Shown here piece by piece: positions 36,361-56,508 of a stretch of 64,000 bases of DNA. Position 1 is the stretch's first letter, and every line of letters starts with the position of its first letter. Position numbers and translations under genes: made by a program. The stretch is from contig QUJQ01000002.1 in assembly GCA_003480725.1 (NCBI GenBank), forward strand, positions 1 to 64,000. Direction: 5' to 3'. The stretch is from Clostridiaceae bacterium AM27-36LB. Its GTDB lineage: Bacteria; Bacillota; Clostridia; Lachnospirales; Lachnospiraceae. The notes beneath the pieces were generated by a model. The model made no database searches. It saw only the letters and a list, made by a program, of their open reading frames with translations, and was not told the origin of the DNA.

Positions 36361-37733
36361 GCGTTCATCCTCCAGCCGGAGAAATATTTATTCCGAAGAG
36401 TTCCACGGATCAGCTTTCCCCAGCCCAGCGGATACCCATCCACACATACCAGCTGCCAGCCTGCATCTTTGGTACTCTCTCCATCCTCAATCTCGATGGT
36501 CTCTCCCTTCAGATAGCGGATGATCCGCTCGTCTGTAGCTGGAAGATCGATGACTGATGCATATTCCTCCTTTTTCAGAACCATGGCAAATGCCTGACTC
36601 GGCTCAAATCGTTTTTTCAGAAGTTCACCCATATAAAGACCGGAGCGTAAGAATCGAAGCCCTTTGCAGCCGCTTAAGCCCTCCGGCATCAAAAATACTT
36701 TGGTATCTTTGATCTGAATTCTGGTTGTATCAACAGGCATGGACACATCTTTCAGAAAATCTGTCAGCTCCTGCGGAAGCTTCGACGGTTTTCCAGCTGA
36801 CTCCAGCGCATTTGGCGTACGCTCTCCATCTTTCTGAAGCAATGCCAGAAAATGCCCCTCCCCATCGATCTTATGAGGAAACAGACGAACACATTTTTCC
36901 AGTGGAAATGTACTGTCCACCAGTTCTGGCTGTCCTGGTGCAAAGCCTTCACTCTGCGGAATATCCAGCAGATGGAACTCCGGGTGATTGCTCAGAAAAT
37001 AATCCATGCTTCCTTCATTTTCCAGTTTAGAGAAGGTACAGGTAGAATAAAGCATGGTTCCACCCGGCTTCAGCAGGTTTGCTGCCTGATCCAGAATCTC
37101 CCGCTGCATTTTGGAAAACACCTCCGGTCCCTGGCGTTCCCACGCCGGGATCATATGAGCCTGTTTCCGGAACATTCCCTCACCGGAGCAGGGAGCATCG
37201 ATCAGGATCTTATCAAAATATTCATGAAAATACCGGTCCAGCTTGTCTCCCATCTCACTGGTCACCAGAATATTGGGGAGACCAAATACTTCCAGATTCT
37301 TCAGCAGAGCTTTTGTCCTGGATGCGCTGGCATCGTTGGCGACCAGCAGGCCCTCATGGCGAAGCTTTGCACCAAGCTCCGTTGCTTTTCCACCCGGAGC
37401 CGCACACAGATCCAGTACCCGTTCTCCCGGCTCCACCGGAAGGACACTTGCCGGCGTCATGGCACTTGGCTCCTGAATATAATAAAGACCTGCATAGTAA
37501 TAAGGATGCTTTGTCGGCGCATCCTCTTCTGTATAATAATATCCGTTGGGAGTCCATGGTACTCTCCGAAGAGTCTTGAATGGGCTGATCCTCTCAAATT
37601 CCTCGACAGAAATCTTGGAAGTATTGACTCTTAAGCCTGTAAACTTCGGTTTCTCGTAGCTTTCCAGATATTCTGGAAGCTCCGGACCTAATATTTCTTT
37701 CATTTGTTCTACAAATATCTGTGGAAGATTCAT
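36357..37733 (-). CDS. RsmF-like class I SAM-dependent rRNA cytosine methyltransferase
   Basis: A 458-residue NOL1/NOP2/Sun family enzyme that makes 5-methylcytosine in rRNA. V-L-D-L-C-A-A-P-G-G-K-A-T-E (near 106-119) binds SAM. D-A-P-C-S-G-E-G-M-F-R-K (near 178-189) and Y-S-T-C-T-F hold the two catalytic Cys. The C-terminal region (about 320-458) is like the RsmF RNA-binding and PUA-like domains. It overlaps recD2 by four bases. Confidence 0.9.
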   Translation of the reverse strand: MNLPQIFVEQMKEILGPELPEYLESYEKPKFTGLRVNTSKISVEEFERISPFKTLRRVPWTPNGYYYTEEDAPTKHPYYYAGLYYIQEPSAMTPASVLPVEPGERVLDLCAAPGGKATELGAKLRHEGLLVANDASASRTKALLKNLEVFGLPNILVTSEMGDKLDRYFHEYFDKILIDAPCSGEGMFRKQAHMIPAWERQGPEVFSKMQREILDQAANLLKPGGTMLYSTCTFSKLENEGSMDYFLSNHPEFHLLDIPQSEGFAPGQPELVDSTFPLEKCVRLFPHKIDGEGHFLALLQKDGERTPNALESAGKPSKLPQELTDFLKDVSMPVDTTRIQIKDTKVFLMPEGLSGCKGLRFLRSGLYMGELLKKRFEPSQAFAMVLKKEEYASVIDLPATDERIIRYLKGETIEIEDGESTKDAGWQLVCVDGYPLGWGKLIRGTLRNKYFSGWRMNA

Positions 37734-42495: not shown

Positions 42496-44457
42496 TCAGT
42501 TTACCATTCCGCATTCCCGAAGTAGCTTTCCAACTGCTGTCCGATCCACCCGCTTCAATAGTTTCTTCTTTACTTTTTCAAGAGGCAGCGGAAGTTCCAG
42601 TTCCAGCGGAGATTTTCCATCCATCAGTTTGACTGAGCTTGCCAGCAGTTCCCGCACGTCATAGACGCTTCCCCATACTTCCGGTATACCCCGATCCACG
42701 CCGCACAATCCATAGACCGCTTCCATGGCAGTACGGACCGAATATTCTGTAGTAAAGATCGTATCTCGCGGCGTCTCTGCAAACTGTCCTAAAAATGCGG
42801 CATTCACACAGCCATCCGGGATCACATCCGGCCGGTCACCTGCCGCCCGTGGCATAAAAAATGCAGTAATATAAGGCATCATCGTTGGCACACAAACTGC
42901 ATGATACTCTGCCAGTTCCTCGATCTCTGACACCGGCACACCCAGATGATACAGCCACTCCGCAGTAATTTCTTTTCCCGTACATATTTTCATCGGCTTC
43001 TTTATATAATCTCCCGGCACATCGGTGAACAGTCCGTAAAGCCAGACGCAGATTTCTTCCTTCTTCTGGTTCTTAAACTGCCCCTGCCGGTTGATGGTCC
43101 AACTCAGCAGCCAGCTTGAGTCTTTACAGCTTACGATTCCTCCTGTCACCACTTGTCCGCTTCGCGGATCACGTCTGCAGATTTTCCGAATATAAGACAG
43201 GATCGTTTCATCGGAAGTAGTCACTGTTGCTGATTCCCAGTTGGTTTTTTCAATATCAGAACAGAATTTCTCCGGATGACCAAAGGCAGGATCCTGTGCA
43301 GCAATGTTCTTCCAGAGATTCCAGCAGCCACTTTTCTTCACTTCTGCATTTCCCACAGGTGCATGATCCTGATCACCATAAATCGTCTCTTCCGTACAGC
43401 TTCCATTTGTGATAAAGACAAGATCATCCTCCGTCAGTGGAATCTCCTGCTTTTCACCCTTGATCCGACACTCAATGGCTCTTGCCGTCTTCTTCTCACC
43501 CTTGATCACGAATCTCACATTGGTCACTTCTGTTCCCAGTCGGATCTCCACCCCTGCATGTTCCAGATATTTTAGCATCGGCAGAATCAAGGATTCATAC
43601 TGATTATATCTGGTGAATTTCAAGGCTGAGAAATCCGGCAGTCCTCCGATATGATGAATAAAACGCTGAAAATACAGCTTCATTTCCAGTGCACTATGCC
43701 AGTTTTCAAAGGCAAACATAGTTCTCCAGTACAACCAGAAATCAGACTTGAATACTTCATCATCAAACACGTCCTCTATGGTTTTGTCATACAGATCTTC
43801 ATTTTTTGTGAAAAACAATTTAATGATCTCCATGCTCCCCTTCTGGCTTAAACGAAATTTTCCATCCGTGTGAGCATCTTCCCCACGGTTTTTCGTGGCG
43901 CGACACAACGAATAATTAGGGTCATGCTTATTGAGCCAGTAAAATTCATCCAGAACTGATGCCCCCGAAATCTCCAATGATGGAATACTGTGGAACAGAT
44001 CCCACAGACACTCAAAATGATCTTCCATCTCCCGTCCACCCCTCATCACATAGCCTCTGGTCGGATCATGGATTCCATCGCAGGAACCTCCAGTAATGTC
44101 CATGGCTTCCAATATATGAATATTTTCGCCTGGCATCTGTGCATCCCTTATCAGGAAACAGGCCGCCGCCAGGGAACCAAGGCCGCTTCCTATCAGATAC
44201 GCAGTTTTTCCTTCTATTCCCACTGGTTTCTCTGGTCTGGCAAATGCCTCATAGTTTCCCTTCGCATAATAAATACCCTTGCTGTTCTTTTTCTGACTGC
44301 CCCGCTCGGTATTCCGATAGTCGGATTCCGGAATCTTCGTCTGTCTCATATGATCCACAGACTGCATCTGTCTCTTTCTTGTCTCCGCAAGAAGAACGGT
44401 TCCTGTTCCTACCGCCAATGCAGATGCCATCCCCACTTTCCATGCATTCTTTCCCAT
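42496..44457 (-). CDS. ohyA: oleate hydratase
   Basis: A 653-residue FAD-dependent enzyme of the myosin-cross-reactive antigen family, which adds water to the cis-9 double bond of unsaturated fatty acids, making 10-hydroxystearate from oleate. The flavin fold starts A-Y-L-I-G-S-G-L-G-S-L-A-A-A (near 85-98), and M-R-G-G-R-E-M-E near 143-150 includes the catalytic Glu region. Unlike many homologues it has an N-terminal hydrophobic segment (A-W-K-V-G-M-A-S-A-L-A-V-G-T-G-T, about 5-22) that could anchor it. Start at ATG 44457 follows AAAGGA at nine bases. Confidence 0.92.
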   Translation of the reverse strand: MGKNAWKVGMASALAVGTGTVLLAETRKRQMQSVDHMRQTKIPESDYRNTERGSQKKNSKGIYYAKGNYEAFARPEKPVGIEGKTAYLIGSGLGSLAAACFLIRDAQMPGENIHILEAMDITGGSCDGIHDPTRGYVMRGGREMEDHFECLWDLFHSIPSLEISGASVLDEFYWLNKHDPNYSLCRATKNRGEDAHTDGKFRLSQKGSMEIIKLFFTKNEDLYDKTIEDVFDDEVFKSDFWLYWRTMFAFENWHSALEMKLYFQRFIHHIGGLPDFSALKFTRYNQYESLILPMLKYLEHAGVEIRLGTEVTNVRFVIKGEKKTARAIECRIKGEKQEIPLTEDDLVFITNGSCTEETIYGDQDHAPVGNAEVKKSGCWNLWKNIAAQDPAFGHPEKFCSDIEKTNWESATVTTSDETILSYIRKICRRDPRSGQVVTGGIVSCKDSSWLLSWTINRQGQFKNQKKEEICVWLYGLFTDVPGDYIKKPMKICTGKEITAEWLYHLGVPVSEIEELAEYHAVCVPTMMPYITAFFMPRAAGDRPDVIPDGCVNAAFLGQFAETPRDTIFTTEYSVRTAMEAVYGLCGVDRGIPEVWGSVYDVRELLASSVKLMDGKSPLELELPLPLEKVKKKLLKRVDRTAVGKLLRECGMVN

Positions 44458-44672
44458 ACAAACAAATCCTTTCTTTTTGCAGATATTTTCCGCAGAAAGA
44501 AAGGATTTATTCAGGACTTGATTATTTACAGGTATCACTTTCTACATTTAATTCCCGATATGTCCTTGCAATGATGATCGCCGAGATTACAAATGATTTT
44601 CTTAAATTGCTCTTCCATTGGAAATAGTAATAACGCACAAAAAACTATTCATATTTTTATGCAAAACTGCTT

Positions 44673-45084: not shown

Positions 45085-45831
45085 TTAACGAATCTGCGCT
45101 GCCAGTGCTTTCACCAGTTCAACATCCACGAATTCATAATCCATCCGATGTGGATCTGACAGATATGCATAACTTACACTACCAGTTTCTGTAGTAGAAT
45201 CCATGCGGTAGGATTTGCAGGAAGAATGTATCTGACGAATGCCTGTCTTTTCCATGAGTTCCCGTACATTTCCAGCGTTGACACCGCTTCCAGCCAACAA
45301 TTCGATCTTATCTCCGTACTTATTCTGAAGCTCTGCGAGCAATGTCGCGCCCTCCGACGCTTTTGCCTGCTGCCCACTGGTAAGCAACCGATTCACACCG
45401 CAGTCTATCATTGTCTCGATAGCTTTTTCCGGTTCCGGTGTCACATCAAAGGCTCTGTGGAATACAGCCTCTCCGCCTTTCACATGAATCAGTTCCACCA
45501 TTTTTTTCGTCTTCTCCGCGTCCACAGTTCTGTCTGCTTTCAGAAATCCGAAAGCAATTCCATCAGCTCCATGCTCCAGAAACAGTTCCGCCTCCTCCAG
45601 CATAAGCTGTGCTTCTGTTTCATCATAGCAGAACCCACCTGCCCGCGGTCGTACCATACACACAATCTTGAGGGATGTCTCCTTCTTTGCCCGCATAAGA
45701 CTGATAAGTGATGGTGTCAGTCCACCCACGCTTAAAGCACTGTTCAGTTCTACCCGGTCTGCTCCTCCCTTTTCTGCAGCCAGACAGTCCTGATAACTTC
45801 CGGCACACACTTCAAATGTAATCTTCTGCAT
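45085..45831 (-). CDS. cutC: CutC family protein
   Basis: A 248-residue TIM-barrel protein of the CutC family. It begins F-E-V-C-A-G-S-Y-Q-D-C (6-16). V-E-L-N-S-A-L-S-V-G-G-L-T-P-S (27-41) and V-R-P-R-A-G-G-F-C-Y are its signature. CutC was linked to copper tolerance, but this role is uncertain. Here it is the last gene of the nitrogenase-like/Hyp operon, three bases after the preceding stop codon, so it is probably translated with it. I infer a role linked to metal or cofactor handling in this system. Confidence 0.9.
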   Translation of the reverse strand: MQKITFEVCAGSYQDCLAAEKGGADRVELNSALSVGGLTPSLISLMRAKKETSLKIVCMVRPRAGGFCYDETEAQLMLEEAELFLEHGADGIAFGFLKADRTVDAEKTKKMVELIHVKGGEAVFHRAFDVTPEPEKAIETMIDCGVNRLLTSGQQAKASEGATLLAELQNKYGDKIELLAGSGVNAGNVRELMEKTGIRQIHSSCKSYRMDSTTETGSVSYAYLSDPHRMDYEFVDVELVKALAAQIR

Positions 45832-45834
45832 CTT

Positions 45835-46986
45835 TTAACCCTCCCTAAAATCTTGTATCCTGTGCATATGATCAATAAACATTCTTCCCGAAAATGCCAC
45901 ATGTGGGATTTCATAAAAGGTTCTGTCCTTCGGACAGATCGGACGATACAGAGGGTCTGCTACAATAATCTTCGTATTCTTCAGTTCCTCTTCCATCGCT
46001 TCTTCTCCCAGCACTGCCTTATCATTTTTCCCAAGTAAGACTTCACAACCCTTTAACGGACACAGTACACGGGTCATGCGTCCATATTTTTTCTCGATAC
46101 CTGCTGCCAACGATCCCATAGTGACCGGCTCTCCAATCAGAGTGATCTCTGTCTCCTGCTGCATACGGTTCTGCAAATATACATTTGCAGTGGCTGTCTG
46201 CTGCGTAACCGCCATCTCCAGTGCATAGGAAATATCTTCTGCCAGCCACTGATTCGGTGTTCCGATCACATAAGGGATGTGGCAAGTTTCCCAGAGAACC
46301 TTTGCTGCCCGCAGTCCCACTGCAGATACCACCAGATTGACATCTGCATTTCCTGATGTCTGTAAAGTCTCGAAGTCATCTCCCATAGCCCATGTAGACA
46401 AAACATTCCATCCATATTTATTCAGATTTTCTTTTAATGTATCTACATTTTCCTGTGGGCCAAAATCCAGTGGTGTTATGCCCAGAAGGTTGACACTGCG
46501 AGAAGAACCACTTTTCGCCTGACAGCCAGGTGCTTTGACGAAGCGCCTTGCAATCTCTTCTAAAGCCATCCCAGCTCCATATACATAATCATGCATGCCA
46601 TTTGTCGGCACAGAAAATGTGGGGATACCTGTTTTATTTTCAATCACTCGCGCGATTGCCGGAAAGTCCGTACCATTCATATAAGGAATCGGCGAACCCG
46701 CCAGGGCAATGAATGCAGGCTGCAGTTCACTGGCTGCATCTACAATATCATCAATAAATTTCCGGTCATTTCCCATGATTGCATCTGTTTCTGTAAGTCC
46801 GGAGATATAGATCAGGCTGTCCTGATCATACCAGCGGATCTCGTCATGGGTATTATAAGTAGAATTACATCCGGAAGGGTCATGCATGACTGTCATTCCG
46901 CCCAGTTCATACAAGGCAGAACAGACACCTGACACATCTGCCGTATATACCGGTATGATTCGATATGATTGTCTCATAGGCAGCAT
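45835..46986 (-). CDS. nitrogenase component 1-like protein, pair 2 small subunit
   Basis: About 383 residues of the NifD/NifK/NifE/NifN superfamily. Near the start are C22 and H-D-P-S-G-C (C40) followed by N-S-T-Y-N-T-H-D-E-I-R-W, which sit where NifD has its cluster-ligand cysteine. L-A-G-S-P-I-P-Y-M-N-G-T-D-F lies where NifD has a Thr-x-Cys, but Cys is absent. It is clearly similar to the protein at 53404-54465 (S-G-x-x-S/C...-Y-E, D-E-x-R-W, G-S/T-P-x-P, G-T-D). It likely forms a dimer with the preceding gene product, whose end it overlaps. ATG 46977 is an alternative start. Confidence 0.75.
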   Translation of the reverse strand: MLPMRQSYRIIPVYTADVSGVCSALYELGGMTVMHDPSGCNSTYNTHDEIRWYDQDSLIYISGLTETDAIMGNDRKFIDDIVDAASELQPAFIALAGSPIPYMNGTDFPAIARVIENKTGIPTFSVPTNGMHDYVYGAGMALEEIARRFVKAPGCQAKSGSSRSVNLLGITPLDFGPQENVDTLKENLNKYGWNVLSTWAMGDDFETLQTSGNADVNLVVSAVGLRAAKVLWETCHIPYVIGTPNQWLAEDISYALEMAVTQQTATANVYLQNRMQQETEITLIGEPVTMGSLAAGIEKKYGRMTRVLCPLKGCEVLLGKNDKAVLGEEAMEEELKNTKIIVADPLYRPICPKDRTFYEIPHVAFSGRMFIDHMHRIQDFREG

Positions 46987-48275
46987 TCGCACCCCCATCC
47001 CTTTTGAACGACCAGTTTTTCTGTATTTTTTTCATTTTGATATGCATCCATCATCAGCTCTGCAGTTCTTCGGATACCATCGAATCCATACAGACCTTCT
47101 CCCTGTACCAGATTGACAAAATGTCGGCTGCGACTGAAATAAGCTGCTTTCTGCCCGATTGCAAGCACTTCTTCACCGCTGCCTCTTGGCAGGATCCGCA
47201 TCTTTGGCTGGATCGTCGCGATCAGTTCCAGTTCCGATGCGTGCTCTTTAAGCCAGAAGAACTCCTCTTTCTCTTCCGGGCTGATACTGTCCAGATAGAC
47301 TGCTTTCACACGGAAACCATGTTTCAGAAGCAGCTTTGCCAGTCCCAGTGGTCTTGGATGGTATAGATAATCTAAGACAATCGGTGTCTCCTGGATCAGA
47401 TTTCTTGCTTCTGTAAGCTTTTCCTCACAGATCGCACGTTCGTGCGCCAGCTCGTCTTTCGTCAGCTCCGGTAATCCAAGCATGTCTGTTAACTGCTTTA
47501 ACTGCCGTTCGATCTCTTCATAAGAAAAACTACCCGGAAGATAAAGATGCTCGCGATCCAGACGTCTTGCCTGCGCTTCCATTCCATATTTTCCGGCAGG
47601 ATAACAGTTAATAAACAGACAACCCTTACTCATCTCCAGCAGTTCCTGCCAGGTATTGCAGACAGGCAGTTCTCTCACTGTATACCCATATCGCTTCAAT
47701 AACCGCTTGATGTCACTGCTCTCATCCAGGGCAAAATCACTGCCAAATACAGAGACGCTCTTTTCCTCTGCTTTACAGGCTGGAAGCATATCATACATAG
47801 CTTTCCGAAGCTTCTGATCCGGAGTCAGACTATGCTTTTGCATGATCGGATCCATATAGCATCGAATAAAACAGATATCTGGAAAACGTTCCTCTAATTT
47901 CCGATAAATATATTTCAGATCGCTTCCCAGAAAATGATGCAGACAGACAGTGAATAATAAAACAGCTTTGGGATGGTCTCCCCGTTTGTTCAGTACGTCA
48001 GTCACTCCCTCAATAGTAAGATCCTCCAGATTACTGTATAAGACATCTTTCTGCTCCACAATGACATAGGAAAAACGATCTGACGCATTCATCTCCGCAG
48101 CAGTCAGCACAACTCCACGCATACAGTTCTCTGCACAGACATAAATCTGTATAGACTCTGGAACCTGCATCCCTGTGTGCACAATATTCCAGTTGCCGTG
48201 CACTGGCGAATTATATTCCAGCTTCGATGCGAACGGTGCAGGAAATGAAGCATCTTTTATTGCTATCCTGCTCAA
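46974..48275 (-). CDS. nitrogenase component 1-like protein, pair 2 large subunit
   Basis: A 433-residue NifD/K-superfamily member. Y-N-S-P-V-H-G (21-27), V-P-E-S-I, cysteines C47 and C51 in C-A-E-N-C, and C111 in F-T-V-C-L-H-H-F-L-G-S-D align with the protein at 54452-55750 (F-N-S-P-G, V-P-D-S-I, C70 C71, [12 protein letters not shown]). A Cys-rich tail, W-G-C-E-C-C-L, ends the chain and may bind metal. The start is TTG 48275, overlapping the stop of the TM1266-like gene and following GGAGGAG. Partner and substrate unknown. Confidence 0.78.
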   Translation of the reverse strand: MSRIAIKDASFPAPFASKLEYNSPVHGNWNIVHTGMQVPESIQIYVCAENCMRGVVLTAAEMNASDRFSYVIVEQKDVLYSNLEDLTIEGVTDVLNKRGDHPKAVLLFTVCLHHFLGSDLKYIYRKLEERFPDICFIRCYMDPIMQKHSLTPDQKLRKAMYDMLPACKAEEKSVSVFGSDFALDESSDIKRLLKRYGYTVRELPVCNTWQELLEMSKGCLFINCYPAGKYGMEAQARRLDREHLYLPGSFSYEEIERQLKQLTDMLGLPELTKDELAHERAICEEKLTEARNLIQETPIVLDYLYHPRPLGLAKLLLKHGFRVKAVYLDSISPEEKEEFFWLKEHASELELIATIQPKMRILPRGSGEEVLAIGQKAAYFSRSRHFVNLVQGEGLYGFDGIRRTAELMMDAYQNEKNTEKLVVQKGWGCECCL

Positions 48276-48547
48276 TCGTCTGCTCCTCCTTCTGCCGGAG
48301 TGATCACATTAGAATAAGCCGTCTTCGCTGATATGCCTTTTAAGTGTCCGATCTTTCCAGAAAGTGCGCTGATCTTATCCTGCGGCGCATCAATGGCAAT
48401 GCTGATGATGCTGATTCCTTTTGCACGGTATGGAATCCCCATTCTGCCGATAATGTACTGGCGCGCTTCATGAAGCAACGTGTTTAATTCCTCGATCGCA
48501 TTATCCTGTTCTACAATAATGGAAATAACTGCCACTCTGGTGTCCAT
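48272..48547 (-). CDS. TM1266 family iron-only hydrogenase system putative regulator
   Basis: A 91-residue ACT-like protein. D-T-R-V-A-V-I-S-I-I-V-E at the start, R-Q-Y-I-I-G-R-M-G-I-P near 28-38, and I-S-I-I-S-I-A-I-D-A-P near 45-55 match the TM1266/NikR-C-like family, usually encoded with [FeFe]-hydrogenase genes. No such hydrogenase is near here. GGAGG lies nine bases before the ATG. The position in the operon suggests it may sense a ligand of the pathway. Confidence 0.85.
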   Translation of the reverse strand: MDTRVAVISIIVEQDNAIEELNTLLHEARQYIIGRMGIPYRAKGISIISIAIDAPQDKISALSGKIGHLKGISAKTAYSNVITPAEGGADD

Positions 48548-48588
48548 GCTTTGATTCCTCCTGTTTATTTACAACGATTCACAGCTGT

Positions 48589-49596
48589 TTAACAGATCCG
48601 CGGTAAAAGCTCTCCTCCCGGCTGGGGAAGCAGTGCCTGCGTTCCGATCTCAGTCTCCATGATCACTCTTCCTGGTTCATCTGCGATCACCTCTCCAATG
48701 ATCGCTGCATCTGCGGAATAAGGACATTTCCGCAATGTCTCTACAACGGCATCTGCCTCTTTTTTCGGTGCCATGATCACGAGTCTTCCTTCACATGCCA
48801 GATATAAAGGCTCCAGACCCAACATTCCACAGACACCTTTTACTTCTGGCTGTACCGGGACAGCTTTTGCATCCAGACGAATGCCCACATTACTCTGCCC
48901 GGCAATCTCATACAGAACTGTTCCCACACCACCTCTGGTGGCATCACGGATCACATGCAGATCGTGTGTGGTATCCATGACTGCCTTTACCGTATTCCAC
49001 AGAGGTGCACAGTCACTGGTCACATCCGCATCAATTCCGAAATCTTCCCGTTCCAGCAGGATCGTACATCCATGTCGCCCGATATCGCCAGTCACAATGA
49101 TCGCATCGCCCGGTTGTGCCAGTGCTCCACCAACAGTGACTCCTTCTTCAATCGCGCCTATTCCCGTTGTAGTGATAAATACACCATCCACCTGACCTTT
49201 TCCGGCTACCTTGGTATCTCCTGACACAATATGTACACCTGCTTCTTTTGCCGTTTTCTCCATGGCAGAAGCGATCTCCTCCAGTTTTTCCATAGGAAAT
49301 CCTTCTTCAATGACAAATGCACAGGTAAGATACAGTGGTCTTGCTCCCATACAGGCAAGGTCATTGACCGTTCCACAGATAGACAGTTTGCCAATATTTC
49401 CTCCCGGGAAAAATGCCGGAGAAACAATGAAACCATCCGTAGAAACTGCCATTTTCCCCACAGGCGGAAGTAGTACCGCTGCATCATCAGCCGTCAGATC
49501 CTTATTTGCAAAATGTGCCTTGAATATCTGATCGATCAATTCAGATGTCTGCTTACCACCAGCACCATGCGCCATTGTTACTGTTTTATTTTCCAT
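48589..49596 (-). CDS. hypE: hydrogenase maturation protein HypE
   Basis: A 335-residue PurM-like ATP-binding protein. With HypF it turns a thiocarboxamide on its C-terminal Cys into thiocyanate, giving cyanide ligands. M-A-H-G-A-G-G-K-Q-T near the start and D-D-A-A-V-L near 38-43 bind nucleotide and metal. T-G-D-I-G-R-H-G near 175 and R-D-A-T-R-G-G-V-G-T near 221-230 are typical. The chain ends L-P-R-I-C with the required C-terminal Cys. ATG 49596 is preferred to GTG 49599 for spacing from AAGGA. Confidence 0.95.
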   Translation of the reverse strand: MENKTVTMAHGAGGKQTSELIDQIFKAHFANKDLTADDAAVLLPPVGKMAVSTDGFIVSPAFFPGGNIGKLSICGTVNDLACMGARPLYLTCAFVIEEGFPMEKLEEIASAMEKTAKEAGVHIVSGDTKVAGKGQVDGVFITTTGIGAIEEGVTVGGALAQPGDAIIVTGDIGRHGCTILLEREDFGIDADVTSDCAPLWNTVKAVMDTTHDLHVIRDATRGGVGTVLYEIAGQSNVGIRLDAKAVPVQPEVKGVCGMLGLEPLYLACEGRLVIMAPKKEADAVVETLRKCPYSADAAIIGEVIADEPGRVIMETEIGTQALLPQPGGELLPRIC

Positions 49597-49626
49597 CACA
49601 TTTTCCTTCTTTCTTTAGGTATTGGC

Positions 49627-49776
49627 AACTATTCAGAGCCACATTCGCAAAACCGCTTCTTCGAAGCTTTCCTTTTGCTCATGTATGGCTTCTCGCCATA
49701 TACAGGCACCGAAATATGTTCCTGTATGCAAGCATACGTCACATATTTACGAGCCTGTGCATGGCTCTGAATAGTT
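49627..49776 (-). repeat. 150-bp MITE-like inverted-repeat element between hypD and hypE
   Basis: AACTATTCAGAGCCA (49627-49641) and TGGCTCTGAATAGTT (49762-49776) are perfect 15-bp inverted ends. Inside are further hairpins, such as GTATGC-AA-GCATAC, ATGGC-TTCTC-GCCAT and GCTTC-TTC-GAAGC. The outer end overlaps the hypD stop codon. A shorter relative is at 51039-51075. Confidence 0.8.
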
Positions 49777-50803
49777 ATGCATATTGATAGTACGCAGAAC
49801 ATGCTCCCTCACCGGATACCATACAAGCCCCCACCGGATGCTGCGGCGTACAGACTTTTCCGAACACTTTACAATCGGAGGGTCTGCATTTTCCCTGCAG
49901 CACATCGCCGCAACGACAGGCAGGATTCGGTTTTCCTTCTATCTTTGGCATCTGATATTTAATCCGCGCATCAAACTCCTGCCACTCCTGTCTTAGCCTC
50001 ATTCCAGATGCAGGGATCACCCCCAGCCCTCGCCATTCACTGTCACAGGCTTCCATCATCTCATCTACCAGCTGCTGTGCCTCCCTGCTTCCATCCTGTG
50101 TCACCACACGTGGATAACAGTTTACAAAAAATGGCTTTCCTTCCTGAAATTTTGCCAGTGCAACTGCAAGTGCTGTCATCAGCTCTTTTGCCGTAAATCC
50201 TGCCACAACACCGCTGATGCCTTCTTCTGCCAATGTCTCACACAGATGTGTTCCTGTGATGGCATTGACATGTCCCGGATATAAAAATACATCGGCACTT
50301 CCCTTTAACGCTTCATAAGCCTGAGGCATGGTTTTGTTGGCAGTCAGTATGGAGTAATTAGAACATCCGTCTTCCTTTGCTGCTTTGACTGAAAGACATC
50401 CCGCCGGTGTTGTTGTCTCGAATCCAACCGACAAAAATACCACCTGCTCATCCCCGTGTTCTCTGGCATATTTTTCAGCATCCGCCGGAGAATACACAAT
50501 GCGGACCTTTGCCCCCTGTTCCCGCGCACCCGCAAGACTCATCTTCGTTCCTGGCACACGGACCAGATCTCCAAAAGTACAGATAGTAACCCTCTTTTCC
50601 AGTGCCAGGTAAATTGCTTCGTCAATAAAACTGACCGGAGTTACACATACCGGACATCCCGGTCCTGAGATCAGCTCTACCTGTTCCGGCAGTAATTTAC
50701 GGATTCCCAGCCGGAAGATCTCATGAGTATGTGTCCCACACACTTCCATGATCCGCACATGAGGACCATCATAGGTTTCAATTATCTCTCTGGCTGTCTT
50801 CAT
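49775..50803 (-). CDS. hypD: hydrogenase maturation protein HypD
   Basis: A 342-residue iron-sulfur protein that, with HypC, holds the Fe(CN)2CO unit during assembly. It has E-V-C-G-T-H-T-H (20-27), G-P-G-C-P-V-C-V-T-P near 48-57, and a C-terminal Cys-rich region (C-R-C-G-D-V-L-Q-G-K-C and C-T-P-Q-H-P-V-G-A-C) that binds [4Fe-4S]. All these are canonical. It overlaps hypC by four bases. The stop codon lies on the edge of the inverted-repeat element. Confidence 0.95.
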   Translation of the reverse strand: MKTAREIIETYDGPHVRIMEVCGTHTHEIFRLGIRKLLPEQVELISGPGCPVCVTPVSFIDEAIYLALEKRVTICTFGDLVRVPGTKMSLAGAREQGAKVRIVYSPADAEKYAREHGDEQVVFLSVGFETTTPAGCLSVKAAKEDGCSNYSILTANKTMPQAYEALKGSADVFLYPGHVNAITGTHLCETLAEEGISGVVAGFTAKELMTALAVALAKFQEGKPFFVNCYPRVVTQDGSREAQQLVDEMMEACDSEWRGLGVIPASGMRLRQEWQEFDARIKYQMPKIEGKPNPACRCGDVLQGKCRPSDCKVFGKVCTPQHPVGACMVSGEGACSAYYQYA

Positions 50804-51012
50804 TGTAAAAATTCCTCCATGAGATGCTCTGTCTCGCTGTCATCCTCTTCTGTGATCTTTGCGATGGCCACGCCAGCATGAACCATCACATAATCTCCCG
50901 GCTCCAGATCCTCCAGAAGCTGGGCGGAAACCTCTCTTTTTGCACCGCCTGCATCAATAACTGCAGTACCATTGCTGATCTTTACTACTTTCGCAGATAA
51001 ACCTACACACAT
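50800..51012 (-). CDS. hypC: hydrogenase maturation chaperone HypC
   Basis: A 70-residue chaperone beginning M-C-V-G, with the invariant Cys2 that binds the iron complex and, in hydrogenase systems, the large subunit precursor. V-D-A-G-G-A-K-R-E-V (about 20-29) and G-D-Y-V-M-V-H-A-G-V-A-I form the small OB barrel. ATG 51012 is certain from the M-C-V/L-G rule and GGGAGG upstream. It lies between hypF and hypD. Confidence 0.95.
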   Translation of the reverse strand: MCVGLSAKVVKISNGTAVIDAGGAKREVSAQLLEDLEPGDYVMVHAGVAIAKITEEDDSETEHLMEEFLQ

Positions 51013-51038
51013 TTTTATAGCCTCCCATTCTATACTGT

Positions 51039-51075
51039 AACTATTCAGAGCCCATGTGCATAGCTCTGAATAGTT
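51039..51075 (-). repeat. short copy of the MITE-like element, overlapping the end of hypF
   Basis: AACTATTCAGAGC (51039-51051) and GCTCTGAATAGTT (51063-51075) form a 13-bp inverted repeat around CCATGTGCATA. It matches the two ends of the 150-bp element, joined through an internal deletion. The hypF stop codon TAG (51043-51041) and the last residues L-F-R-A-M-H-M-G-S-E are encoded by it. Confidence 0.75.
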
Positions 51076-53383
51076 GTGCCATACCATATGCCGCCTGTCC
51101 GACAGCGATTCCTCCGTCATTTGGCGGAACCATACGGTGCCGCAGCACTTCAAATCCTTCTTCTGTCAACCGTTCTTCTGTCAGACGCAACAACAGGCGA
51201 TTCTGAAACACGCCACCGCTTAAGACAGCTTTCTGCCTGCCGCTTACATTTCGAGCTTCCACACAGACAGCTGTGATCTGCTCTGCCAGTATCTCATGGA
51301 ACCAATACGCCAGTCTGCCACTATCTGCCCCCTGCAGCTTTGCTTCCACAATCCGCTGCACCAACAATTGGGTATTCAGAATAACATGTCCGTCTTCTTC
51401 ATATACCAACGGATCTATTTTCTCATTTTGTTTCTGTTCATGATCTTTTTGCTCATATGCTTCTGCTGCAAATTCCAGTGCCATGGATGCCTCGCCTTCA
51501 AAGCTGGACTTATGTCTGATACCAAGAATTGCACTGACTGCATCAAATAGCCGTCCCACACTGGTAGAGAGCACTGCATTCAACTTCCTGTCTGCCATGG
51601 CAAACTGTACCTTGCTCTCTTTTTCACTGCACAGATCAAGCTTTTTCATAATCTCCCCTGCAAGCTCACGGTCTTTGGTATAGCCGTAGATCATAGATAC
51701 TGCGATCCGCCAGCCTTCTTTTGCAGAGACATCTCCGCCAATCTGTAAAAATGGAGTTATATTTCCAAATCTGGTAAAGTCCTCATAATCTGCCAGCAGA
51801 ATCTCTCCACCCCAGATCGTACCATCTGTTCCATATCCGGTTCCGTCAAAGGCAACTCCAATAACCGGCTCCTGACAGTCATTTTCTACCATACAGGATA
51901 AAATATGTGCATAATGGTGCTGCACCTTTACTATCGGATAACCCAGCTCTTCTGCCACCACTGTGGAATTATATTTCGGATGCAGATCACAGACTACCAC
52001 CTGTGGATGTACTTCCAACAGTGTCTGAAACCGTTGGATCGTCTCCTGCAATGCTTTTACTGTCCTTAAGTCTTCCAGGTCTCCCACATATGGAGACGGA
52101 TAAAACCGACTGTCCACACCAATACAAAAGGTATTCTTCAGCTCTCCGCCGACTGCGAGCACCTTCCCTTTCCAGTCTGTCGACATCATAAATGGAAGCG
52201 GTGCATAACCTCTGGAACGTCGGATCATATACGGTTCATTTTTGTAAAAGTCCATGACCGTATCATCTGCCCGGATCCTGATCTTTCGATTATGGGACAG
52301 CATGGCATCACACAGATGTGACAGCTCCGCAACTGCCTCCGTATCCTCGCGGCAGATCGGTGCGCCGGAAGTATTTCCACTTGTCATGACCAGAATATCC
52401 GGCATCTCGATTCCGTCATCATACTGAAAAATCAATAATTGCACAGGCGCATATGGAAGCATCACTCCAACTTTTGGATTGCCCGGTGCAATAGAAGGCG
52501 CCAGTCTGCCTCCATTTTCTTTATCCAGCAGAAGGATTGGTTTCTGATGACCGGTCAGGATCATCTCCTGCTCCGGTGTCACCACGCATTCCCGCTTTAC
52601 CACCGATTCATCCTTTGCCATAACTGCAAAAGGCTTGGCCGGACGTCTCTTTAATGTCCGCAGACGCTGGACTGCTTCTTCGTTGGTGGCATCACAACAC
52701 AGATGGAAACCGCCGATTCCTTTGATTGCCACAATCTTGCCTTCGCTGATCATCCGACGTGTATAAGTGATGGCATCCTTTCCTCGCTCTGATCTGCCGA
52801 TCAGATAAACTTCCGGCCCACATTTATTACAGCACACCGGCTGCGCATCATAGCGCCTTGTCGTTTCATCCTCATATTCCTCTGCACAGTCCGGGCACAT
52901 GGGAAATTCTTTCATGCTCGTCCGTTCCCGGTCATAGGGCAGCGCATCCAGAATGGTAAGTCTTGGTCCACAGCAGGTACAGTTGATAAATGGATGCAGA
53001 TACCGCCTGTCCTTTGGATCATACATTTCTTCCTTACATTCTTCGCAGATCGCAATATCCGGCGAAACAAAGATCTCTCCCTTGGTCTTTTCACTTTCAA
53101 TAATATTAAACGTCTCAAAATGCATGTCTGTCTCTGCTGTGACATCCTCTGTATTGATTTTTAAAATAGCTGCACGTTTGGGTGGTTGGACTTCCAGTGC
53201 CTTCAGGAATCCTTCCATCTGTTTCTTTTGCCCCTGAGCATATATTTCCACATAAGGTCCCTTATTGCAGACCGTTCCGCAAATTCCGTTGGATGTCGCA
53301 TGACGACTCACCGTTGGCCGAAAACCAACCCCCTGAACGATACCATATACTCGGATACGCCAGGTCAGTTCCTTCTTGTTCAT
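51041..53383 (-). CDS. hypF: carbamoyltransferase HypF
   Basis: A 780-residue enzyme that carries carbamoyl from carbamoyl phosphate to HypE for cyanide synthesis. Domains: acylphosphatase (1-90), two zinc fingers (C-E-E-C ... C-T-C-C and C-P-D-C ... C-N-K-C, about 108-185), a YrdC-like part (about 200-385) with I-K-G-I-G-G-F-H-L, and the Kae1-like carbamoyl-transfer part (Y-N-S-T-V, V-Q-H-H-Y-A-H, D-G-T-G-Y-G). The end has L-S-G-G-V-F-Q-N. The last ten residues come from an inverted-repeat insertion. Confidence 0.94.
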   Translation of the reverse strand: MNKKELTWRIRVYGIVQGVGFRPTVSRHATSNGICGTVCNKGPYVEIYAQGQKKQMEGFLKALEVQPPKRAAILKINTEDVTAETDMHFETFNIIESEKTKGEIFVSPDIAICEECKEEMYDPKDRRYLHPFINCTCCGPRLTILDALPYDRERTSMKEFPMCPDCAEEYEDETTRRYDAQPVCCNKCGPEVYLIGRSERGKDAITYTRRMISEGKIVAIKGIGGFHLCCDATNEEAVQRLRTLKRRPAKPFAVMAKDESVVKRECVVTPEQEMILTGHQKPILLLDKENGGRLAPSIAPGNPKVGVMLPYAPVQLLIFQYDDGIEMPDILVMTSGNTSGAPICREDTEAVAELSHLCDAMLSHNRKIRIRADDTVMDFYKNEPYMIRRSRGYAPLPFMMSTDWKGKVLAVGGELKNTFCIGVDSRFYPSPYVGDLEDLRTVKALQETIQRFQTLLEVHPQVVVCDLHPKYNSTVVAEELGYPIVKVQHHYAHILSCMVENDCQEPVIGVAFDGTGYGTDGTIWGGEILLADYEDFTRFGNITPFLQIGGDVSAKEGWRIAVSMIYGYTKDRELAGEIMKKLDLCSEKESKVQFAMADRKLNAVLSTSVGRLFDAVSAILGIRHKSSFEGEASMALEFAAEAYEQKDHEQKQNEKIDPLVYEEDGHVILNTQLLVQRIVEAKLQGADSGRLAYWFHEILAEQITAVCVEARNVSGRQKAVLSGGVFQNRLLLRLTEERLTEEGFEVLRHRMVPPNDGGIAVGQAAYGMAQLFRAMHMGSE

Positions 53384-53403
53384 ACTCTTCCCTCATCACA
53401 GGA

Positions 53404-54465
53404 TCATTGGCAACCCTGTTCTCTCACTTCCGTAAGACGTCCCGATACAGCAAAATGCACCGCGTCCACAAAAGTTCCGGAAAATTCCGGTGTCATCCGC
53501 TCCATGCAGTGATCCGCATAGATCACATCGAAAGCTCCGCTTTCCACCAACTGGATATAATCTTCTTCATCCCTCAGATGAAGATCTCCATCCTTACGAA
53601 GTTCCGGCTTTACCATGAACCAGCTCGCCACCGTTATCTGTGCATCCGGTGCCTTTCTTAAGATTTCTTCCCGAATGGCAGAACCAATTACCTGCTGCTG
53701 TACAATCAATACCTTTTTCCTATGATAATCCATGTCAAAAATCAGTTCATCCACCAGCGGATATCCAACCTCATAAGGTGTTCCATAGGTTCGTTCCAGA
53801 TATTTCGCCGCTTCCAGGGCTGCCGGAGATACCACAATATGTCTCTCCACATTGGAAACCTTCTTCACAGCCCCCAGTCCATCTCCCATTCCATAACAGA
53901 CAGCTGTCTTTCCTTCCTCTGCAAAACGTTTCCTGATACGATCTGCAGCATGCAGATCACTGATATCCTGCGGTGTCATGCCAAGGATCCCGACCCTGCC
54001 CGGGATCACATCTTCCTTTTCACCTGCAAATACATAAAACAGTTCCATCCATGCTTTTTCTTCGCCTTTATCATACAATTCCATGCCATCCGTATCCACA
54101 GTCATGATCGGCAGATCCACCTTTTTCTCTGTCATACGCTTTAATGCATGATAATCGGTTCCGATCACGGCAGGAACCGGTGTTCCGATAATCGCTGCAA
54201 ATTTTGCATCCAGCTTCGTGGCTGCATCTGCAAGCTTTGCCACCAGTCTGTCATCCCGACCAAGAATTGCATCCATATCACGAAGTCCCGCACTGAACAG
54301 GGCACTTTTGCTTTCAAACCACCGCGGCTCATCAAATCCACAGATATTTCCGGTGCAGCCACCGGCATCACAGATCACGATAATCCCGTCAAATTCATAA
54401 AATACAGACACTGCGCCGGACTGATCCGGTGCAAAAGGTGTCAGGAATTTTCTAAGTCCTCTCAT
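53404..54465 (-). CDS. nitrogenase component 1-like protein, pair 1 small subunit
   Basis: About 353 residues in the NifD/NifK superfamily. C32, C37 and C42 in I-C-D-A-G-G-C-T-G-N-I-C-G, followed by F-D-E-P-R-W, occupy the cluster-ligand region. G-T-P-V-P-A-V-I-G-T-D-Y replaces the second Cys motif. It is paralogous to the protein at 45835-46986. ATG 54465 follows GGAGG and overlaps the upstream partner by 14 bases, which supports a heteromeric pair. It precedes hypF, with 20 bases between. Confidence 0.78.
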   Translation of the reverse strand: MRGLRKFLTPFAPDQSGAVSVFYEFDGIIVICDAGGCTGNICGFDEPRWFESKSALFSAGLRDMDAILGRDDRLVAKLADAATKLDAKFAAIIGTPVPAVIGTDYHALKRMTEKKVDLPIMTVDTDGMELYDKGEEKAWMELFYVFAGEKEDVIPGRVGILGMTPQDISDLHAADRIRKRFAEEGKTAVCYGMGDGLGAVKKVSNVERHIVVSPAALEAAKYLERTYGTPYEVGYPLVDELIFDMDYHRKKVLIVQQQVIGSAIREEILRKAPDAQITVASWFMVKPELRKDGDLHLRDEEDYIQLVESGAFDVIYADHCMERMTPEFSGTFVDAVHFAVSGRLTEVREQGCQ

Positions 54466-55750
54466 TATATGATACCTCCGCCAATGCCTCAAACAGTCTG
54501 CGCACTCCTGCATAGCCAAATGGCTGCTGTTCCTCATTCCAGCGCACATTTGGACATTCCTTGTGATAATACCCGGCATCTTTTCCGATAGTCAGATCAA
54601 TGTCGGACTGGCTTCCATCATAATACAGCATGGTTGGTTCCAGATTGGAAAATACTTTTGTCTCTGGACTTATCTTCGCCAGCTGTTTTACATAGACGAA
54701 ATTTTCTCCTGACAAAGTTCCATAGATCTCCGGCACACGGAATCCATAACGAACCAGCGCAAGTGCCAGTTCAAAAGGATCTGCATTCATCCATTCTCCA
54801 ACGGCAAAGGATGCATCAGGATGCAGTTCCCGGAATTTTATGATAACATCCTCCGCTGCCTTACGCGGTGCTTTATCATCGAACTCTACTCCCAGTGCCG
54901 CCCCAAAAGCTTGATACTGGCTGGCAATTTTGTCAGTCTGATAAAGTCTTCTAAGCTCGATATAGGGAATTTTCAACCGGTCATGAAAATCTTCTGCTGC
55001 GAATCGTGCTTCCGGGTGCAATACCAGATTAAAATTTGCTTCTGCCATAGTCTGATATTCTGCGTAATCCCTGCACCTGGAGATCTCATGAATGGTTTTC
55101 ACACCCGCTCCGCGAAGTAACTCATACAGCTCACAATCGTCAATCAGCGGCGAAAAATATCCCAGCAGATTTACCACATTTCCTTTTTTCTTCTTCGGTT
55201 CTAGCAGAGAATAGATGGACTGCCGTACATGCACCATAGGCGGCTTCCTGCCCTCTCTGGTCAATGCATACATATAACAGGGTCTCACTGGAATTCCAAC
55301 AGACTCCTCCGCCTTATGACAGACGCGCTCCATATCCGTGCCAAGCAGTGCATCCACGCAGGTGATACAGATCATTATGACCGATGGCTTTTTCTCCAGA
55401 CCTTCACAGATCTCCGCCACAGCCTTCGGGATCTTTTTCAAATGTCTTCCTGTCACAATATCCGTCTCGTCCATCAGCAGATAATAAAACCGGTCATGGT
55501 ACGCTCGCATGGAACTGAGAACTGACGTATTGCGTCCACAGCATCCCGGAGATACGATCAGCATAATGGAATCTGGCACTGCCAGTCCTGCTCGTTTGAC
55601 ACCAAATCCTTCGGCTCCCGGCGAGTTGAATGCCAGCGTGGCTGGAGAACTGTAGATCAGATGCGTATGAGATATCAACTGCTGCGGAATGTTATTTTTT
55701 CCCAGCTCATCCAGTTCTTTTACTGTACAAAAATAAGCTTCCTGTCTCAT
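54452..55750 (-). CDS. nitrogenase component 1-like protein, pair 1 large subunit
   Basis: A 432-residue NifD/NifK-superfamily protein. F-N-S-P-G-A-E-G (41-48), V-S-P-G-C-C-G-R-N (C70, C71), then [13 protein letters not shown] (C128, C131, near 127-139) resemble NifD's S-P-x-x-C and T-C-x-x-x-x-I-G-D-D blocks that bind the P-cluster. It directly follows the NifH-like gene with an ATGA overlap, so the two are probably made together as reductase and acceptor. The C-terminal half is a set of Rossmann-like domains. The substrate is unknown. Confidence 0.8.
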
Positions 55751-56508
55751 GCACCTTCCTCTTCTTTCCACAGCAGTGCCGCAAGGTCAAGGAAACATTT
55801 ACTGATCCTGGAAGTTGGATCTCCTTCGATCACCGTCTTTCCCTGCTCTTCCCAGTGGATGATCTCATCACTTCGTGGCACCTCTCCCACGATGGGCACT
55901 CCGATCTTCTCTGAAAATGCCTGTACTTTCTCTGTCTCGTTTTCTACATTTCTGTGATTTAACACGATTCCAAATACCCGGGCATAACTGCGATCCTCAA
56001 AGTTTCGAACTGCACTGGAAATATTGTTGGCGGCATACAATGCCATTTTCTCCCCGGATGTAACGATCAGGACTTTATCCGCATATCCTTCACGAATAGG
56101 TGCTGCAAATCCACCGCATACCACATCACCCAAGACATCGTACAAAACCACATCTGGTTTATAATGTTCAAATAATTCCATATCTTCTAACAACTGAAAT
56201 GTTGCAATAATGCCTCGCCCAGCACAGCCAAGTCCCGGTGTCGGACCTCCGGTCTCAATACAGAGGATCCCCCCATAACCCTCTTTAGAAATCTGCGAAA
56301 GATCATCTGGCTCCTCGTCTTCTTCTCTCATATAATTCATCACCGGGCGAAGCGGCTCACCTCCAAGTAAATTGATGGTAGAATCTGCTTTCGGATCACA
56401 CCCGATCTGAATAACACGTTTCCCCATAGTGGCAAATGCCGCCGCCAGATTCGAAGTTACCGTAGATTTTCCGATTCCACCCTTTCCATATACTGCTACC
56501 TTTAACAT
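55747..56508 (-). CDS. nitrogenase iron protein NifH-like reductase
   Basis: A 253-residue ATP-dependent reductase of the NifH/BchL/CfbC family. The P-loop G-K-G-G-I-G-K-S-T is at 8-16, G-C-D-P-K-A-D-S-T at 36-44, C95 in G-L-G-C-A-G-R-G, and C131 in [11 protein letters not shown]. Both cysteines that hold the [4Fe-4S] cluster between subunits are present, as is the Arg after the first. It heads an operon of four nitrogenase-like and four Hyp proteins. No nifE/N/B or classical nifDK is present, so nitrogen fixation is unlikely. Confidence 0.88.

What the first reader, a model, noticed from the sequence alone, without database searches (positions are those of the whole stretch)
45085..56508. 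Nitrogenase-like operon combined with HypCDEF: candidate undescribed metalloenzyme or cofactor pathway
Seen: one co-directional run, mostly overlapping, encodes a NifH-like reductase, two pairs of NifD/K-like proteins, HypF, HypC, HypD, HypE, a TM1266-like regulator and CutC. Known: HypCDEF make the Fe(CN)2CO group for [NiFe]-hydrogenases; nitrogenase-like systems include Chl/Bch, CfbCD and methylthio-alkane reductase, none of which uses Hyp proteins to my knowledge. Inference: the Fe(CN)2CO unit, or a related iron carbonyl/cyanide centre, may be delivered to or built on the nitrogenase-like subunits for an unknown reduction.
Basis: partly seen in the sequence, partly recalled or inferred. Interest (0 to 1): 0.95.

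Follow-up and report, generated by a model that had tools for sequence, protein, structure and literature searches.

The report
HydG-free route to hydrogenase cofactor
A conserved gut-bacterial gene set joining nitrogenase-like proteins with cyanide-making Hyp proteins is found in bacteria that have iron hydrogenases but mostly lack the enzyme thought to be needed to build their metal centre, so it probably builds that centre by another route.

Summary
The operon is real: NifH-X1-X2-HypF-HypC-HypD-HypE-TM1266-X3-X4 (X1-X4: divergent nitrogenase component-1 proteins). The order X1-HypF-HypC-HypD-HypE on one strand holds in 55 of 55 relatives' loci where all five were called. CutC is not part of it. 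Relatives include Roseburia, Blautia, Anaerobutyricum, Clostridium acetogens and Coriobacteria.

[NiFe]-hydrogenase is not the usual target: 31 of 40 operon genomes have no match. All 40 have [FeFe]-hydrogenase and 39 have HydF and HydE, but only 2 have HydG, which makes the Fe(CO)2(CN) building block. In samples of 243 and 190 genomes, all 20 X1 carriers have HydF and none has HydG; none of 239 distinct HydF+HydG+ genomes has X1. HydF or HydE lie near the operon in 22 of 80 loci.

Best explanation: the operon replaces HydG, making the iron carbonyl/cyanide synthon through Hyp chemistry and ATP-driven reduction. This would resolve a published puzzle of HydG-less acetogens (PMC9431212). The chemistry is inferred and untested. 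Papers listed by my searches did not describe it.

The parts
55747..56508 (-). NifH1: NifH-like Fe protein (ATP-dependent reductase)
   Evidence: PF00142 9e-89; below NCBIfam cut-offs for nifH, CfbC, BchL, BchX; C37, C83, C95 and C131 conserved in at least 95% of 76 aligned rows
54452..55771 (-). X1: NifD/NifE-like subunit; fused to X2 in 11 of 80 loci
   Evidence: PF00148 2e-31; AlphaFold2 model pLDDT 83.4, best solved folds MoFe protein, VFe protein and NifEN; fusions
53404..54465 (-). X2: NifK/NifN-like partner of X1 (ORF start 54579; family start about 54465)
   Evidence: PF00148 6e-16; alignment A5, conserved C75 and C80
51041..53383 (-). HypF carbamoyltransferase
   Evidence: TIGR00143 771 bits, cut-off 466
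50800..51012 (-). HypC
   Evidence: TIGR00074 61 bits, cut-off 48; Cys2 conserved in at least 95% of 63 rows
49775..50803 (-). HypD
   Evidence: TIGR00075 387 bits, cut-off 193; GPGCPVC cysteines C50 and C53 conserved in at least 95% of 68 rows
48589..49599 (-). HypE with C-terminal cysteine (C336)
   Evidence: TIGR02124 429 bits, cut-off 252; C336 conserved in at least 95% of 58 rows
48272..48547 (-). TM1266-family protein (family named by NCBIfam as putative regulator of iron-only hydrogenase systems)
   Evidence: TIGR03959 112 bits, cut-off 61; called in 37 of 80 loci
46974..48275 (-). X3: NifD/BchN-like subunit of the second pair; its first five codons are the remnant of a deleted second NifH
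   Evidence: PF00148 3e-13; model pLDDT 85.4, folds like AnfK, NifK, NifEN, DPOR, Mar; junction
45835..46998 (-). X4: second subunit of the second pair (BchB/NifE-like)
   Evidence: PF00148 2e-26; profile search of solved structures; C44 conserved
45085..45831 (-). CutC: adjacent on the same strand, probably not part of the system
   Evidence: PF03932 3e-57; no homologue found in the 80 relatives' loci

Best explanation
[quoted passage not shown] Normally HydG splits tyrosine to make Fe(CO)2(CN)(Cys), which HydE and HydF turn into the [2Fe] subcluster. Here HypF, HypE and HypCD would make iron-bound cyanide and carbonyl from carbamoyl phosphate. NifH1 with X1-X2, and NifH2 (or NifH1 in this window) with X3-X4, would then use ATP-driven low-potential electrons on NifEN-like scaffolds to convert the Hyp product into the unit that HydE/HydF accept, perhaps by making the extra CO from CO2 or by reducing the iron. 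Shown by computation: gene content, conserved order, conserved cysteines, folds of X1 and X3, association with HydA/E/F and near-exclusion of HydG. Inferred from family knowledge: the Hyp chemistry. Inferred only: the hand-over between Hyp, the nitrogenase-like pairs and HydE/HydF, and what each pair does.
For: (1) 40 operon genomes: [FeFe]-hydrogenase 40 of 40, HydF 39 of 40, HydE 39 of 40 (seven ORFs tested, the weakest included, pass the NCBIfam cut-off), HydG 2 of 40, no [NiFe] large-subunit match in 31 of 40. (2) 243-genome sample: X1 in 7 of 12 HydF+HydG- and 0 of 153 HydF+HydG+ genomes, Fisher 1.4e-9. (3) 190-genome family sample: X1 in 13 of 21 against 0 of 87, Fisher 9.9e-12. (4) Linkage: HydF in 19 loci (one an edge fragment) and HydE in 14, either in 22 of 80; HydF within 12 kb of X1 and on its strand in 8 of the 20 sample carriers (coordinates); a group A6 HydA directly upstream in L259. 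(5) Twelve of the 40 genomes have only one HydG-like match at E up to 0.001, and it is the HydE ORF, so no ThiH-like substitute is left in them. (6) Conserved Cys of HypC, HypD and HypE. (7) X1-X2 fused in 11 loci and NifH2-X3 in 2. (8) PMC9431212 (passages) reports acetogens with HydE and HydF but no HydG found, and HypCDEF without HypAB, unexplained.
Against: Two operon genomes also have HydG. Thirteen of 33 HydF+HydG- sample genomes lack X1, and four of these have no PF00148 match, so a missing HydG can have other causes. X4-like pairs also occur in genomes without HydF or with HydG. Hyp proteins are known to give Fe(CN)2CO, whereas HydE takes Fe(CO)2(CN): the ligand ratio does not match without an extra step. 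The window's own genome is not held and no HydE or HydF lies in the window, so its HydA/E/F/G content is inferred from relatives. HydA was seen beside the operon at only one place. Among HydE/HydF neighbours, those in several Coriobacterial loci are on the opposite strand. PMC9431212 proposes a candidate HydG in C. autoethanogenum and atypical ones elsewhere.
Confidence: 0.75

Rival explanations
1. One reading: the Hyp-made iron unit sits in the X1-X4 proteins as a permanent active site for an unknown reduction, and the link to hydrogenase is indirect, for example because the enzyme needs H2 or low-potential electrons.
For: The nitrogenase fold is mostly catalytic (folds); related NifH-X3-X4 pairs occur with importers in genomes in which no HydF was found.
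Against: Does not explain why none of 239 distinct HydF+HydG+ sample genomes but 20 of 33 HydF+HydG- genomes carry X1, nor HydE/HydF near the operon in 22 of 80 loci. In the printed alignments the Cys of the NifD CHRS motif, recalled as a cofactor ligand, is not kept in X1 or X4.
Confidence: 0.12
2. The operon matures a [NiFe]-hydrogenase and the nitrogenase-like genes are passengers.
For: HypCDEF are the standard [NiFe] set; six Clostridium genomes have strong PF00374 hits, and there the Hyp set may serve both.
Against: 31 of 40 operon genomes have no PF00374 match at 1e-8, and three more have only short N-terminal matches. PMC9431212 reports two sets of HypCDE in C. carboxidivorans.
Confidence: 0.03
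3. HydG is replaced by an unrecognised radical-SAM enzyme; the operon only supplies part of the ligands, for example free CO or CN-, or does something parallel.
For: PMC9431212 proposes atypical HydG candidates; many operon genomes have a second HydG-like match at 169-228 bits, which I take for ThiH without having tested it.
Against: Twelve of the 40 genomes have only the HydE match. The operon is a gene set whose presence tracks HydG absence.
Confidence: 0.08

Closest known systems
HydG-dependent H-cluster maturation (HydE, HydF, HydG)
   Same: Same proposed target enzyme, with HydE and HydF each present in 39 of 40 operon genomes
   Different: HydG is absent in 38 of 40; its place is taken, on this reading, by Hyp plus nitrogenase-like proteins
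HypCDEF pathway for the Fe(CN)2CO group of [NiFe]-hydrogenases
   Same: Full HypF, HypE, HypC, HypD with conserved cysteines
   Different: No [NiFe] large-subunit match in 31 of 40 genomes; built into a nitrogenase-like operon
NifEN, the nitrogenase cofactor scaffold
   Same: NifEN is among the listed fold matches of the X1 and X3 models; NifE is among the best profiles of X1, X2 and X4
   Different: 10-20% identity, far below the family cut-offs; sits with Hyp and Hyd genes
Protochlorophyllide reductase (BchLNB) and CfbCD
   Same: Fe protein plus two-subunit partner; X4 scores BchB first and X3 scores BchN first
   Different: Below cut-offs; associated with hydrogenase maturation genes
Methylthio-alkane reductase (Mar)
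   Same: Same fold; among the structural matches of X1 and X3
   Different: About 16% identity; its gene partners were not compared here

Membership tests
HydG-type H-cluster maturation | HydG encoded in the genome | tested here: not met
   2 of 40 operon genomes have it; 0 of 20 X1 carriers in the samples
HydG-type H-cluster maturation | HydA, HydE and HydF encoded in the genome | tested here: met
   40, 39 and 39 of 40, in relatives; the window's own genome is not held
[NiFe]-hydrogenase maturation | A [NiFe] large subunit to receive the group | tested here: not met
   31 of 40 genomes have no PF00374 match; strong matches in six Clostridium members
[NiFe]-hydrogenase maturation | HypC, HypD, HypE, HypF with conserved cysteines | tested here: met
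   that these cysteines are catalytic is family knowledge
[NiFe]-hydrogenase maturation | HypA and HypB | not tested
Nitrogenase | NifH/NifD above family cut-off and the cofactor Cys ligand | tested here: not met
   NifH 313 against 394 bits; X1 reaches no NifD cut-off; Cys of the NifD CHRS motif not kept in the printed alignments (that it is the ligand is recalled)
CfbCD (F430) or BchLNB | Profile above curated cut-off | tested here: not met
HydG-independent H-cluster pathway (proposed) | Operon required for [FeFe]-hydrogenase activity | not testable with these tools
   Needs genetics or reconstitution

The most novel reading that the evidence does not exclude
There is a second natural route to the H-cluster, built from [NiFe]-hydrogenase cyanide chemistry and two nitrogenase-like assembly machines. 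Its core, NifH2-X3-X4 with HydE and HydF, can be fed either by the operon's own NifH1-X1-X2-HypCDEF module or, in other bacteria, by an ABC importer that takes up an iron complex from outside: two HydG-less genomes without X1 carry complete HydE-NifH2-X3-X4-importer-HydF clusters, and four more carry parts of it. H-cluster precursors might thus be traded between gut bacteria.
Probability: 0.25. Interest if true: 0.98.

Novelty: categorically new. Interest (0 to 1): 0.93.

Why it matters
[quoted passage not shown] If this operon replaces it, the H2-handling enzymes of many gut bacteria and of industrial acetogens mature by an unknown route. It would settle one published puzzle, HydG-less acetogens that carry HypCDEF without HypAB (PMC9431212), and might explain part of the abundant cluster IV NifH genes and transcripts of unknown function in human faeces (PMC4995403). 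It would also make nitrogenase-like proteins organometallic assembly factors for hydrogenase, and the idea is directly testable with existing strains and assays.

Tried and rejected
Searching the window's own genome failed because none is held. A scan of viral contigs with X2 matched no pattern, and plasmids had no near match. I first considered the Hyp set to serve a [NiFe]-hydrogenase; rejected for the gut lineages. I considered CutC part of the system; rejected because no relative's fetched locus has it. I considered a ThiH-like HydG substitute; not universal. I hoped that X3-X4 would be confined to HydG-negative genomes. It is not: of 190 genomes 33 matched X4 at 1e-20 and 23 at 1e-75. The 23 are the 13 X1 carriers, three importer genomes, and seven others: G424, G408, G284 and G328 (no HydF, no HydG found) and G463, G401 and G338 (both). 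The seven show importer-linked pairs, so the salvage idea is kept only as the novel case. The independent-pairs test printed is circular, because the HydG rows were chosen as HydG-positive and X1-negative with mostly high HydF scores; only the count of label changes is used. I called the 626-aa ORF before HydA in L259 HydB in my notes; one search names it an NAD(P)-binding protein (NF009410) instead.

Rows and limits: one search filtered sequences by length, and its rows count the window twice; the NifH tree used 55 of 151 sequences, FastTree, midpoint root; 40 of the 80 loci's genomes were given, chosen mainly as isolates and better assemblies. One HydF match in the family sample (G350) is under the cut-off. 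In one search the five loci of 60 without a HypC call had it; my overlap filter dropped it. Literature searches were made; none of the papers listed joins nitrogenase-like proteins, HypCDEF and H-cluster maturation by title, abstract start or the passages read. One search listed 15 of 264. Subscription journals and preprints are not held. Three short PF00374 matches (G020, G022, G040) were not examined further.
Full report
What is there. On the minus strand, 56508 down to 45835, lie NifH1, X1, X2, HypF, HypC, HypD, HypE, TM1266, X3 and X4, followed by CutC. HypF, HypC, HypD, HypE and TM1266 pass curated NCBIfam cut-offs. X1-X4 are PF00148 proteins (E from 2e-31 to 3e-13) and NifH1 is PF00142 (9e-89). 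They fall well under the cut-offs of each nitrogenase, NifE/NifEN, BchL/N/B/X/Y and CfbC/D model that they match. AlphaFold2 models of X1 (pLDDT 83.4) and X3 (85.4) have the nitrogenase component-1 fold, with MoFe, VFe and FeFe proteins, NifEN, protochlorophyllide reductase and methylthio-alkane reductase among the listed solved matches at 10-20% identity. X2 and X4 were not modelled.

How conserved it is. A scan of one genome per species found 420 stretches encoding X1 relatives; the best 80 were kept as loci L001-L080. They come from Roseburia, Eubacterium, Coprococcus, Blautia, Anaerobutyricum, Anaerostipes, Clostridium acetogens and Coriobacteria/Atopobiaceae, many as metagenome bins. Of 60 loci with at least 10.5 kb after X1, all five of X1, HypF, HypC, HypD and HypE were called in 55, in that order on one strand in all 55; in the other five my overlap filter dropped the HypC that one search lists. 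X1 and X2 are one ORF in 11 loci and NifH2 and X3 are one ORF in 2, which supports X1-X2 as a complex and NifH2 as a partner of X3. CutC was seen in none of the 80. HypC Cys2, the HypD cysteines and the HypE C-terminal cysteine are conserved; that these are catalytic is family knowledge.

The clue. Among gene clusters recurring in at least four loci, two of the three commonest were HydF and HydE, the [FeFe]-hydrogenase maturases; the other holds ABC ATPases by the look of its representative. HydF was called in 19 loci (one a 55-aa fragment at the edge) and HydE in 14, either in 22 of 80, on either strand. I therefore searched 40 of the 80 loci's genomes. HydG passed its cut-off in 2 of 40 (C. 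drakei and C. thailandense), HydF in 39, and [FeFe]-hydrogenase (PF02906, E up to 1e-40) was in 40. HydE ORFs with a CX3CX2C motif were found in 39; seven of them, the weakest included, were tested and pass the HydE cut-off. The one genome without HydE also lacks HydF. PF00374, the [NiFe] large subunit, was matched at 1e-8 in 9 of 40: six Clostridium genomes strongly and three only by short N-terminal stretches. Assemblies in one or a few large contigs, such as C. carboxidivorans P7, Blautia massiliensis GD8 and BL-3, are among the HydG-negative ones, so incompleteness does not explain the loss there.

Samples drawn by the tool. In 243 genomes of the class of C. ljungdahlii, HydF was in 165, HydG in 159 and X1 in 7. 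X1 was in 7 of 12 HydF+HydG- genomes and in 0 of 153 HydF+HydG+ (Fisher 1.4e-9). In 190 genomes of the family of Roseburia faecis, HydF was in 108 (107 over the cut-off), HydG in 89 and X1 in 13; X1 was in 13 of 21 and 0 of 87 (9.9e-12). Six of the 20 carriers are also among the 40 above. At least three genomes are in both samples (G116, G215, G278); only G116 counts as HydF+HydG+, so these are 239 distinct genomes. Fisher values ignore kinship. On a HydF tree of 90 genomes (42 X1, 40 HydG, 6 importer, 2 both) the X1 label needs 14 changes, at least 8 forced by well-supported branches, so the pattern is not one clade; HydF itself may have moved between genomes. From the coordinates, HydF lies within 12 kb of X1 and on its strand in 8 of the 20 carriers. 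In one (G178, L259) a HydA over the group A6 cut-off, itself after a 626-aa NAD(P)-binding protein, stands directly before NifH1 on the same strand. A search of the ORFs of the loci then held found no other place with HydA beside the operon.

A second architecture. Of the 33 HydF+HydG- sample genomes, 13 lack X1. Six of these (G101, G166, G234, G318, G380, G393) carry NifH2-X3-X4 beside a binding protein, FecCD permease and ATPase. In two the whole cluster reads HydE-NifH2-X3-X4-importer-HydF-TM1266 (L150, L151). In a NifH tree the NifH2 proteins of five of these six group with the operon's NifH2, and that of G318 (L154) does not. None of the 80 X1 loci has that binding protein within its fetched stretch, and only one has a weak permease match (56 bits, L034). 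This suggests a core that is fed either by synthesis or by import. But similar importer-linked pairs also occur in genomes in which no HydF was found (G424, G408, G284, G328) and in genomes with HydG (G463, G401, G338), so this remains a lead. Three of the 13 (G279, G317, G400) have other nitrogenase-like pairs, and four (G180, G377, G385, G429) have no PF00148 match. G317 has no [FeFe]-hydrogenase match.

Mechanism. Known: HydG makes Fe(Cys)(CO)2(CN) from tyrosine, HydE and HydF convert it, and synthetic Fe2(SH)2(CN)2(CO)4 bypasses HydG and HydE (PMC11736057, passages). Deleting hydG in C. thermocellum was used to inactivate its three [FeFe]-hydrogenases (PMC4355364, abstract). HypCDEF make Fe(CN)2CO (PMC9431212, passages). 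Proposed: HypCDEF supply iron-bound CN and CO; X1-X2 with NifH1 and X3-X4 with NifH2 complete and reduce the unit and pass it to HydE or HydF. The ligand ratio (two CN and one CO against one CN and two CO per iron) requires extra CO or an asymmetric pairing; nitrogenase-type CO2 reduction to CO is one possible source (recalled, not tested). In the window the second NifH is deleted in frame and no other NifH lies in the window, so NifH1 may serve both pairs there, as it may in loci with a single NifH, such as many Coriobacteria.

Literature. PMC9431212 found HydE and HydF in eight acetogens but a HydG candidate in only three, wrote that it had no straightforward explanation, and found HypCDEF without HypAB in five; in its main text 'nifH' does not occur and 'nitrogenase' occurs once, in a reference title. 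For C. ljungdahlii, C. ragsdalei and C. carboxidivorans I agree on the absence, and for C. drakei on the presence. [quoted passage not shown] NifH1 of this operon is a plausible member, not tested by alignment. PMC11736057 links ammonia-lyase genes to hyd operons; an aspartate ammonia-lyase follows HydF in G019 (L089). The papers listed by my searches do not describe this pathway.

Verdict. The most likely function is a HydG replacement in H-cluster maturation (0.75). The chemistry and the hand-over are inference. No known system tested contains it.

Noticed in passing
window 48260-48280: In-frame deletion of a second NifH gene: the X3 ORF begins with the first five NifH2 codons; a 97% identical database cluster with 1024 members has the same protein start.
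   Followed up: yes
L150:4430-13448, L151, L152, L153, L154, L155: NifH2-X3-X4 clusters with a FecCD-type ABC importer, several with HydE, HydF or TM1266, in HydG-negative genomes lacking X1.
   Followed up: partly
L198, L199, L200, L201, L202: A more distant group of importer-linked NifH/X3/X4-like clusters with no HydF or TM1266 called nearby; function unknown.
   Followed up: partly
L203:8662-11665 and L204:4932-7300: A third kind of nitrogenase-like pair (X2-like, X1-like), with a NifH in L203, in genomes that also carry the operon.
   Followed up: no
L160:3718-6322: In HydG-negative G429 an ABC importer of another kind, with a binding protein I take for the NMT1/SsuA type by eye, lies between TM1266 and HydF.
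   Followed up: no
L012:11317-14179: Blautia sp. MSJ-19 has about 2.9 kb with extra ORFs between X1 and X2.
   Followed up: no
L036, L038, L046: HydE and HydF lie between X1 and X2 in three metagenome bins.
   Followed up: no
window 42496-44538: MCRA-family (oleate hydratase type, recalled) protein next to the operon.
   Followed up: no
window 37730-40615: RecD2-like helicase carrying an N-terminal exonuclease domain.
   Followed up: no
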